A stretch of 64,000 nucleotides of DNA. Source: an uncultured Dysosmobacter sp. Lineage in GTDB: Bacteria; Bacillota; Clostridia; Oscillospirales; Oscillospiraceae. A program made the position numbers and the translations under genes. The DNA lies in assembly GCA_947625655.1 (NCBI GenBank), contig CANQPD010000002.1:248001-312000 (forward strand), in the 5' to 3' direction. The notes under the pieces were generated by a model that saw only the letters and a program-made list of their open reading frames with translations, was not told where the DNA came from and did not search any database. Of the stretch, positions 5,408 to 44,915 are shown in pieces. Position 1 is the stretch's first letter. Each line of letters opens with the position of its first letter.

Positions 5408-5571
5408 GGACATGCCTGTAAAAAGCCTGCGGCAGCGGGCTTTTTGCAGGCATTCGAATTCAACACGAGGGGCTCTCGCCCCCTCGTACTCCCCCTGCAA
5501 AGTGGAACACTTTTTCTCCAAACAGAAGTTTTTCGACAAGCTGAAGCCCGCTGCCTGACGGCAGCGGGCTT
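5408..5571 (-). repeat. Structured intergenic repeat, copy 1 (truncated)
   Basis: Reverse-oriented copy of the element at 19394-19671 and 44641-44915. Shared blocks on the minus strand are CAGCTTGTCGAAAAAC, TGTTTGGAGAAAAAGTG, the GGGGGAGTACGAGGGGGC hairpin, and CGTGTTGAATTCGAATGCC. Its intact outer end is a 28-nt hairpin (5544-5571: 12-bp stem AAGCCCGCTGCC, 4-nt loop). The other end is shortened and lacks the internal hairpin array. On the plus strand the outer hairpin is followed by TTTTT and could terminate transcription. Confidence 0.8.
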
Positions 5572-19255: not shown

Positions 19256-19376
19256 GGCAATCCAAGGAAATAACGTCGGCCAGGGGGCGTCTCAACGCGG
19301 ATCCGGCCAGGAAGGCGGAGGACATCGTCCGCTCCGCCTGCGTCACCAGGCGGGAGGGCAAGAAGGTCAAAAAGTA
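19256..19376 (+). other. Unrecognised open reading remnant
   Basis: An open frame without its own start or ribosome site runs to a stop at 19376. Its end reads ARGRLNADPARKAEDIVRSA and then CVTRREGKKVKK. It looks protein-like in composition, but I do not recognise it and it lacks a credible start. It may be the 3' tail of a lost gene. Confidence 0.3.
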
Positions 19377-19393
19377 ATTCCCTGTTTTTCAAA

Positions 19394-19671
19394 AGAGCGG
19401 CCGCCGTTTGGCGGCCGCTCTCAGCTTGTCGAAAAACCTCTGTTTGGAGAAAAAGTGTTTCGTTTCGCAGGGGGAGTACGAGGGGGCGGGATCCCCCTCG
19501 TGTTGAATCGAATGCCTGCAAAAAGCCTGCGGCAGCAGGCGTTTGCGCCGCGAAGCGGCAGCTTTTTGGGCTGCGAAGCAGGCAAAAAAGCGAGGCATTG
19601 TTCAGACTGTCGAAAAAGGCCAAAGGCCTTTTTCGACAGTCTGAGAGCGGCCGCCGTTTGGCGGCCGCTCT
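19394..19671 (+). repeat. Structured intergenic repeat, copy 2 (complete)
   Basis: A 222-bp body (19422-19643) between two identical 28-nt hairpins at 19394-19421 and 19644-19671 (12-bp stem AGAGCGGCCGCC, loop GTTT). The body begins CAGCTTGTCGAAAAA and ends TTTTTCGACAGTCTG, an imperfect terminal inverted repeat. It contains several hairpins: GAGGGGG / CCCCCTC, GCCTGC / GCAGGC, GCCGC / GCGGC, and CAGACTGTCGAAAAAGGCC with its exact complement. A minus-strand open frame inside is judged non-coding because copies keep pairing rather than reading frame. Confidence 0.85.
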
Positions 19672-19833
19672 TTCGCGTCGGTGCGGCGGGGCAGCGCCGC
19701 GTTTTGAAAACGGCTTTACTTTTCCCAAACTTCTCCAACGCGATCCCGGCATAAGGCGGAAATTATTGTGGATACTATCTTTTGCCAGGCAGAGACAGAC
19801 ATAACCATTTGACTGACAAAAGGAGTTTTCAAT

Positions 19834-44640: not shown

Positions 44641-44915
44641 AACGGGAGGAGCGGATGCTCCTCCCGTTCAGTCTATCAAAGCGCCAATTGATTGAAGAGA
44701 AGGCGGGAAAACGCAAGGGGAGTACGAGGGGACGGGAGTCCCCTCGTGTTGGATCAAATGCCTGCAAAAGGGCTGTGATAACAGCCCTTTGCGCCGCGAA
44801 GCGGCAGCTTTTCGGGCTGCTCCGCAGCCTGAAAAGCGAGGCATTGTGAAGTCTGCCAAAAAGTCCAAAGGACTTTTTGGCAGACTGAACGGGAGGAGCG
44901 GATGCTCCTCCCGTT
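44641..44915 (+). repeat. Structured intergenic repeat, copy 3 (complete)
   Basis: A 219-bp body (44669-44887) between identical 28-nt hairpins at 44641-44668 and 44888-44915 (12-bp stem AACGGGAGGAGC, loop GGAT). Only the distal hairpin has a T tract (TTTTTT), so the proximal one cannot terminate and the element should be transcribed in the ilvE 3' UTR. Body hairpins show paired changes against copy 2: AGTCTGCCAAAAAGTCC with its complement replaces AGACTGTCGAAAAAGGCC with its complement, and AAAGGGCTGT / ACAGCCCTTT replaces the GCCTGC / GCAGGC stem. Confidence 0.85.

What the first reader, a model, noticed from the sequence alone, without database searches (positions are those of the whole stretch)
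19394..19671. ~220-bp structured element bounded by identical 28-nt hairpins
Three copies are present (5408-5571 truncated, 19394-19671, 44641-44915). The body is similar between copies, but each copy's flanking hairpin is different. In both complete copies the two flanking hairpins match perfectly (28/28), and all three hairpins are exactly 12-4-12. Body ends form imperfect inverted repeats (CAG...CTG). This looks like a non-autonomous mobile element that inserts at the base of an intrinsic terminator and duplicates the whole hairpin as target, or an RNA-based element that copies it.
Basis: partly seen in the sequence, partly recalled or inferred. Interest (0 to 1): 0.85.

Follow-up and report, generated by a model that had tools for sequence, protein, structure and literature searches.

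The report
Mobile element that duplicates terminator hairpins
A small gene-less jumping element in this bacterium sits beside the hairpins that end genes, with a copy of the whole hairpin on its other side, and transposase-bearing relatives show the same pattern, which suggests that the duplicated target is sized by the hairpin and not by a fixed cut.

Summary
The 222-bp body (19422-19643) is flanked by identical 28-nt hairpins that differ from those of the other copies. In the window's own genome 37 of 42 copies counted have matching (identical or closely similar) hairpins on both sides, as do 9 of 13 further copies; sides taken from different copies do not match. Thirteen orthologous empty sites in relatives, at four loci, have neither the body nor a repeated hairpin. 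The body is a MITE: its ends match those of IS1182-family insertion sequences of the same genus. IS1182 elements show the same duplication: 9 of 12 with both ends found in two relatives, and 22 of 49 examinable loci from other genomes. IS1272, a studied member of the family, deletes its target hairpin; whole-hairpin duplication appears in PMC5678879 as a possible pathway, with no example in what I read. Verdict: new variant of a known kind, hairpin-targeted IS1182-type transposition with a structure-sized target duplication.

The parts
19394..19421 (.). left copy of the duplicated terminator hairpin (target site duplication), 12-4-12
   Evidence: (28/28, flush with the body)
19422..19643 (+). 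MITE body, 222 bp, ends CAGCTTGTCGAAAAA ... TTTTTCGACAGTCTG
19603..19643 (.). right-end hairpin of the MITE (19-3-19), containing the right terminal inverted repeat
19644..19671 (.). right copy of the duplicated terminator hairpin
44641..44668 (.). left hairpin copy of the second element, 12-4-12
44669..44887 (+). second MITE body, about 82.6% identical over body positions 45-222
44888..44915 (.). right hairpin copy of the second element
5408..5543 (-). truncated MITE body (only body positions 1-123 align, at 5421-5543)
5544..5571 (.). single remaining terminator hairpin of the truncated copy, 12-4-12

Best explanation
The element is a MITE (non-autonomous, no gene) of IS1182-family DDE transposons. 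Shown: its ends sit directly beside a hairpin, usually near a gene end, matching hairpins stand on both sides of most copies, and orthologous empty sites carry no second copy. Inferred: an IS1182 transposase recognises the hairpin by structure (an extruded cruciform or single-stranded stem-loop), joins the two 3' transposon ends at the 5' side of the stem on each strand, about symmetrically around the loop, and repair of the two single-stranded hairpins makes the duplication. Also inferred: because the left hairpin keeps the upstream A-rich side and the right one keeps the T-tract side, transcripts from either direction may still terminate after reading through the element. Loop inversions and paired stem changes between some hairpin copies are most simply later events such as replication template switching.
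For: Own genome: 37 of 42 copies counted and 9 of 13 in a further set, with a cross-pair control. Related species: 6 of 7 loci looked at, of 9 relative loci returned. Empty sites: 13 relative loci at four sites, no body and no repeated hairpin. Ends: 7 of 12 IS loci given match the MITE ends over 15-22 nt; for L093 (genome G030) the similarity runs through about 34 nt, and the part beyond the terminal repeat scores above all 2000 shuffles. IS1182 elements: 9 of 12 with both ends found, of 16 loci given, have the hairpin duplication; 7 of these 9 have an uninterrupted frame of 460 codons or more. The two full-length proteins score 442.8 and 446.9 bits against NF033551, cut-off 270. Other genomes: 22 of 49 loci have flanking direct repeats of 20 nt or more, against 1 of 2352 cross pairs; all 22 fold as stems. 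Where the duplication is exact, the arm from loop to cut averages 11.5 bp, s.d. 1.8 (48 cases), and is equal on both sides in 33 of the 49 rows printed.
Against: Copies without a second hairpin: L036 (complete body), four of the 13 further copies (L247, L256, L250, L251), L051 in a relative, and a copy in L048 that I did not count, whose left end is lost and which has a hairpin only on the right. Only 25 of 46 hairpin pairs are identical in direct orientation. L139 and L143 have different hairpins on the two sides and L155 only a partial match. In one search, 27 of 49 loci show no repeat of 20 nt. IS1272 deletes hairpins without duplication, and the IS1182-type MITEPye1 has 4-bp repeats (PMC5678879, PMC4923244, PMC11578231), so the trait is not family-wide. 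The own genome search showed only one decayed IS1182 remnant, so the present mobiliser is not identified. I made no baseline of stem lengths of ordinary terminators, so the clustering of arm lengths may reflect the targets on offer. No transposition was observed; the strand-transfer steps are inferred.
Confidence: 0.9

Rival explanations
1. RNA-based copying: the element and its hairpin are copied through RNA (a retroelement, or a group IIC-intron-like unit that homes to terminators).
For: The body is highly structured (consensus of 32 bodies folds at -114.7 kcal/mol) and sits behind terminators, as group IIC introns do (recalled).
Against: Ends match IS1182 elements; elements with a DDE transposase have the same hairpin duplications; no Rfam family reached its gathering score over 19300-19800. 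No search for reverse transcriptases was made.
Confidence: 0.03
2. The paired hairpins are not a target duplication: two tandem terminators existed before insertion, or the second hairpin was made alike later by gene conversion.
For: 21 of 46 pairs are not identical in direct orientation, and some stems differ by paired changes.
Against: Thirteen orthologous empty sites show no repeated hairpin; 25 of 46 pairs are identical over the aligned hairpin; transposase-bearing elements of other genera show the same.
Confidence: 0.03
3. The hairpin is part of a larger mobile unit and moves with the element.
For: The hairpin is flush, or nearly so, with the ends in most copies.
Against: Hairpins differ from copy to copy, cross-copy pairs do not match, and a hairpin stands at empty sites without the body.
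Confidence: 0.01
4. Same MITE, but the duplicated length comes from a long staggered cut of near-fixed spacing at terminators and not from the hairpin.
For: Loop-to-cut arms cluster (11.5, s.d. 1.8 bp), and the full stem often extends past the cut.
Against: Duplication length varies from about 19 to 40 nt and follows hairpin length (Spearman 0.81, n 37; partly circular because the duplicate is the hairpin); the cut is equal on both sides of the loop in 33 of 49 rows.
Confidence: 0.1

Closest known systems
IS1272 / TnSha1 (IS1182 family, Staphylococcus)
   Same: IS1182-family element; targets stem-loops, several of them terminators, with little sequence conservation (PMC4923244 abstract and passages; PMC5678879 abstract, passages and Discussion part 1)
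   Different: IS1272 removes the target stem-loop and leaves no duplication; here the stem-loop is kept and duplicated
Pathway b of the model figure (Fig 13) of PMC5678879
   Different: Given as a possible branch, without an example in the parts I read; here there are dozens of natural cases
MITEPye1 (Paracoccus yeei; MITE with IS1182-like ends)
   Same: Small non-autonomous element with IS1182-family ends, intergenic, strongly structured (PMC11578231 passages)
   Different: 159 bp, 1-3 copies per chromosome, 4-bp direct repeats
Insertion sequences in extragenic palindromes (ISPpu9; IS1111 in QMITE2)
   Same: Target palindromic extragenic DNA (PMC8450116, abstract start in a search listing; PMC10969869 passages)
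   Different: Targets are defined repeat families; no whole-hairpin duplication in what I saw
SPRITE, BOX and RUP repeats of pneumococcus
   Same: Small repeats, some terminator-like (PMC10969869 passages)
   Different: The element itself resembles a terminator; duplication of a host hairpin was not mentioned in the passages seen

Membership tests
IS1182 family (transposase-bearing relatives) | IS1182 transposase (NF033551) | tested here: met
   442.8 and 446.9 bits, cut-off 270, for the two full-length proteins; the 249-aa partial P0002 scores 189.8, below the cut-off, as its best family
IS1182 family (transposase-bearing relatives) | DUF772 plus DDE_Tnp_1_6 domains | tested here: met
   both full-length proteins over the Pfam cut-offs; partial P0002 lacks DUF772
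IS1182 family (transposase-bearing relatives) | Palindrome or stem-loop target (some members, per PMC4923244) | tested here: met
   9 of 12 and 22 of 49
IS1272-type stem-loop replacement | Target stem-loop deleted, no duplication | tested here: not met
   37 of 42 MITE copies and 9 of 12 elements keep the stem-loop on both sides
MITE of the IS1182 family | Short, no transposase gene, high copy number | tested here: met
   222 bp; 42 copies counted, and 16 of 18 further loci have a body match
MITE of the IS1182 family | Terminal sequences matching a transposase-bearing IS | tested here: met
   7 of 12 IS loci match over 15-22 nt at the ends; L093 over about 34 nt
MITE of the IS1182 family | Mobilised in trans by that transposase | not testable with these tools
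   needs an assay
Retroelement or group IIC intron | Known intron or RNA-family match | tested here: not met
   Rfam scan of 19300-19800, nothing at the gathering score
Retroelement or group IIC intron | Reverse-transcriptase partner | not tested
   no such search was made

The most novel reading that the evidence does not exclude
A branch of IS1182 transposases reads DNA shape: it senses an extruded hairpin and joins both strands symmetrically about one helical turn from the loop, so that the target duplication is sized by the target's structure. This insertion mode leaves terminators usable from both sides and would make them a safe haven for the IS and its MITEs. It is the natural, widespread counterpart of the IS1272 hairpin-deleting mode within one transposase family.
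Probability: 0.6. Interest if true: 0.75.

Novelty: new variant of a known kind. Interest (0 to 1): 0.62.

Why it matters
Target duplications of DDE transposons are usually short and of fixed length (established knowledge). Here they cover a whole hairpin and vary with it, in dozens of MITE copies and in transposase-bearing elements of several genera. That makes it directly testable whether a DDE transposase can recognise extruded DNA hairpins, gives a natural contrast with IS1272 in one protein family (duplicate versus delete), and suggests how an element can insert at terminators without destroying them. Annotation that expects short fixed duplications would miss such elements.

Tried and rejected
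Rfam search of 19300-19800: nothing at threshold. Hairpin as part of the element: rejected by empty sites and cross-pair control. All hairpins 12-4-12: rejected. Cut always at the very foot of the full stem: only partly true, as the full stem often extends further through A-T pairs. Orientation relative to gene ends: no clear bias (15 same-sense only, 9 antisense only, 10 both, 3 neither, of 37; ORF-based). Both flanking tracts kept: only partly (T-rich after the right hairpin 23, A-rich before the left 18, both 11, of 37). Chimera search: hits at four of the ten sites were read; L115, L116 and L123 were looked at and dropped because they do not span the junction, and other hits, some possibly spanning, were not held as loci and not read. 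Alignment A1 was not used because three of its members are only 17-29% identical to the first. Literature: 9 of 10 searches used (two returned nothing, 24 and 65 were longer than the list shown). None listed a paper that I recognised as describing whole-hairpin duplication, but only four papers were opened, in part, and ISfinder is not held. That ISfinder gives repeats of 0-60 bp for IS1182 is recalled, not seen.

Full report
What is there. The window is part of a 3.15-Mb genome in 47 contigs. The element at 19394-19671 is a 222-bp body (19422-19643) between two identical 28-nt hairpins; a second complete copy lies at 44641-44915 and a truncated one at about 5408-5571. The genus is probably Oscillibacter: handle G108, of the same genus, agrees in coordinates and IS copies with Oscillibacter valericigenes Sjm18-20; this naming is an inference.

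Copies in the own genome. A search with the element gave 67 matches from 40 scored candidates of 95. I fetched 40 regions and counted 42 copies: one in each of 39 regions plus the three window copies. In 37 of 42 matching hairpins stand on both sides, and each locus has its own hairpin. The five misses: L015 (ends decayed, hairpin only on the right), L035, L041 and the window copy at 5408-5571 (truncated), and L036 (complete body, no right hairpin). Not counted: the copy for which L048 was fetched (left end lost, hairpin only on the right) and a second copy in L041 cut by the end of the fetched stretch.

A further set. Eighteen more places were fetched, all from the end-motif list, which shows only its first places; 16 of 18 have a body match. 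For 13 I could set both ends, by hand; 9 of these 13 have matching hairpins on both sides, and L247, L256, L250 and L251 do not. Dropped before this count: L244, L246, L248, L249 and L252.

Control. Among 38 copies with both ends alignable (the 42 without L015, L035, L041 and the truncated window copy), the alignment score of a copy's own two flanks has median 27; for 1406 left/right pairs from different copies the median is 7 and the maximum 18.5. Of the 38, 32 exceed that maximum and 35 its 99.9th percentile.

Empty sites. I searched nine relatives with joined flanks of 10 loci (of 20 prepared). Thirteen relative loci at four of the sites were read: none has a MITE body match, and none repeats its hairpin (longest direct repeat in 150 nt: 9 nt or less). 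A perfect stem of at least 8 bp was found in 9 of 13 (one of them, L118, has a second, unrelated 8-bp stem); in the other four the hairpin is imperfect and visible in the folds. At the L022 site relative G008 carries nearly the same hairpin once.

The same MITE in other species. Matches to the body were found in 15 of 60 genomes counting the own one, all in this genus; several are short or weak. Of seven relative copies looked at, out of nine relative loci returned, six have matching hairpins on both sides; L051 does not.

Which transposase. Matches to the transposase domain DDE_Tnp_1_6 occur in 17 of 61 genomes of the genus, the own one included, over the cut-off in 14. Several genes end in TCGACAGNCTG directly beside a hairpin. 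Of 12 such loci compared, seven match the MITE ends over 15-22 nt: L148, L209, L220, L092, L099, L100, L101. In L093 (genome G030) the similarity to the MITE's left end runs through about 34 nt; the part beyond the terminal repeat scores 12, above all 2000 shuffles, while the other 11 ends listed score 1 to 5. So the MITE's left end very probably derives from an IS like that one; I found no such similarity for the middle of the body. L148 in G108 has ends CAGTCTGTCGAAAAA ... GGACTTTTTCGACAGGCTG between related hairpins, and is interrupted by other sequence. The own-genome search showed one decayed remnant below the family cut-off, with an end motif next to a hairpin.

Transposase-bearing elements do the same. 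In 16 loci (15 of G108, and L094 of G071) both ends were found in 12; 9 of 12 have whole-hairpin duplications, 7 of these 9 with an uninterrupted frame of 460 codons or more. L155 has a partial match, and L139 and L143 carry different hairpins on the two sides, as recombination between copies would give. The two full-length proteins tested are IS1182 transposases. I left out 15 O. valericigenes loci (that genome is treated above) and one cut contig (L172), and gave 64; 14 were too close to a contig end, and one of the remaining 50 (L180) was dropped for a run of N. Of 49, 22 have a flanking direct repeat of 20 nt or more, against 1 of 2352 cross pairs; all 22 fold as stems. Named hosts include Desulfosporosinus hippei, Anaerovibrio lipolyticus, Claveliimonas bilis, Lacrimispora xylanisolvens, Parasporobacterium paucivorans and Butyrivibrio sp. 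INlla18, all Bacillota as far as I know. The other 27 of 49 show no such repeat; no tree was made, so I cannot say whether they form their own branch, and since the scan keeps the loci closest to the query this is no census of the family. Where a right-end motif was recognised (27 of 49), a hairpin begins within 3 nt of it in 23.

How it cuts. Where the duplication is exact (22 MITE copies, 7 elements, 20 of the 22 others), the distance from loop to cut is 11.5 bp, s.d. 1.8 (48 cases kept), and equal on both sides in 33 of the 49 rows printed. The full stem often continues past the cut, for instance 20 bp with the cut at 10 in L175. This suggests recognition of a hairpin with joining about one helical turn from the loop, symmetrically on both strands. 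It is an inference from end points, without a baseline of ordinary terminator stems.

After insertion. Of 46 hairpin pairs, 25 are identical over the aligned hairpin. In four (L032, L009, L254, L047) the loop of the second hairpin is the reverse complement of the first, and three more (L011, L042, L043) fit better inverted by 6 or more. Several others (L240, L242, L033, L039, L010) differ by paired changes in both arms. Replication template switching or selection for a working terminator would explain these; neither was tested. At L031 and L249 two contig ends with the same hairpin suggest a tandem of two bodies and three hairpins.

Effect on the host. In 34 of 37 copies an ORF end lies within 70 nt of the element on at least one side (ORFs, not annotated genes). 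Because both hairpins persist, one keeps the upstream side and the other the T-tract side, which would allow termination from both directions; the tracts are clear on both sides in only 11 of 37 by a simple count. This remains a hypothesis.

What is known. For IS1272, an IS1182 member, the stem-loop target is removed and there is no duplication (PMC4923244, abstract and passages; PMC5678879, abstract, passages and part 1 of the Discussion). PMC5678879 names a branch in which joining at the 5' feet would duplicate the whole stem-loop; I saw no example there. PMC4923244 cites a review saying that some IS1182 members target palindromes (review not seen). MITEPye1 is an IS1182-related MITE with 4-bp repeats (PMC11578231, passages). 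The MITE review PMC10969869 does not contain the term IS1182 (term search). In nine searches of the open-access library I recognised no description of whole-hairpin duplication; subscription papers and ISfinder are not covered, so a description there is possible.

Verdict. A new variant of a known kind: a MITE and transposase-bearing IS1182 elements that target hairpins and duplicate them whole. I am confident of the anatomy and the family link, less so of the strand-transfer steps.

Noticed in passing
L009, L032, L047, L254 (hairpins beside the MITE): The loop of the right hairpin is the reverse complement of the left one, so the loop has inverted between the two copies; several other pairs differ by paired changes in both stem arms.
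   Followed up: partly
L031 (G000:C30 end) and L249 (G000:C28 start): Same hairpin at both contig ends, suggesting a tandem of two MITE bodies with three hairpins.
   Followed up: no
L246, 860-891: A near-minimal palindrome made of two abutting transposon ends beside a hairpin.
   Followed up: no
L049 and L107 (G000:C7): Decayed IS1182 transposase remnant with an end motif next to a hairpin; nearby, a 53-bp direct repeat about 340 bp apart.
   Followed up: partly
L094, 1073-1302: The 1850-bp element carries its left-end sequence twice (1073 and 1288), so a longer unit bounded by the outer end seems to have moved; PMC5678879 reports tandem left ends in IS1272.
   Followed up: no
L116 (genome G013), minus strand from 434: A stretch beginning CAGTTTGTCGATAAACCTC beside a hairpin resembles a strongly diverged copy of the MITE, in a genome with no match.
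   Followed up: no
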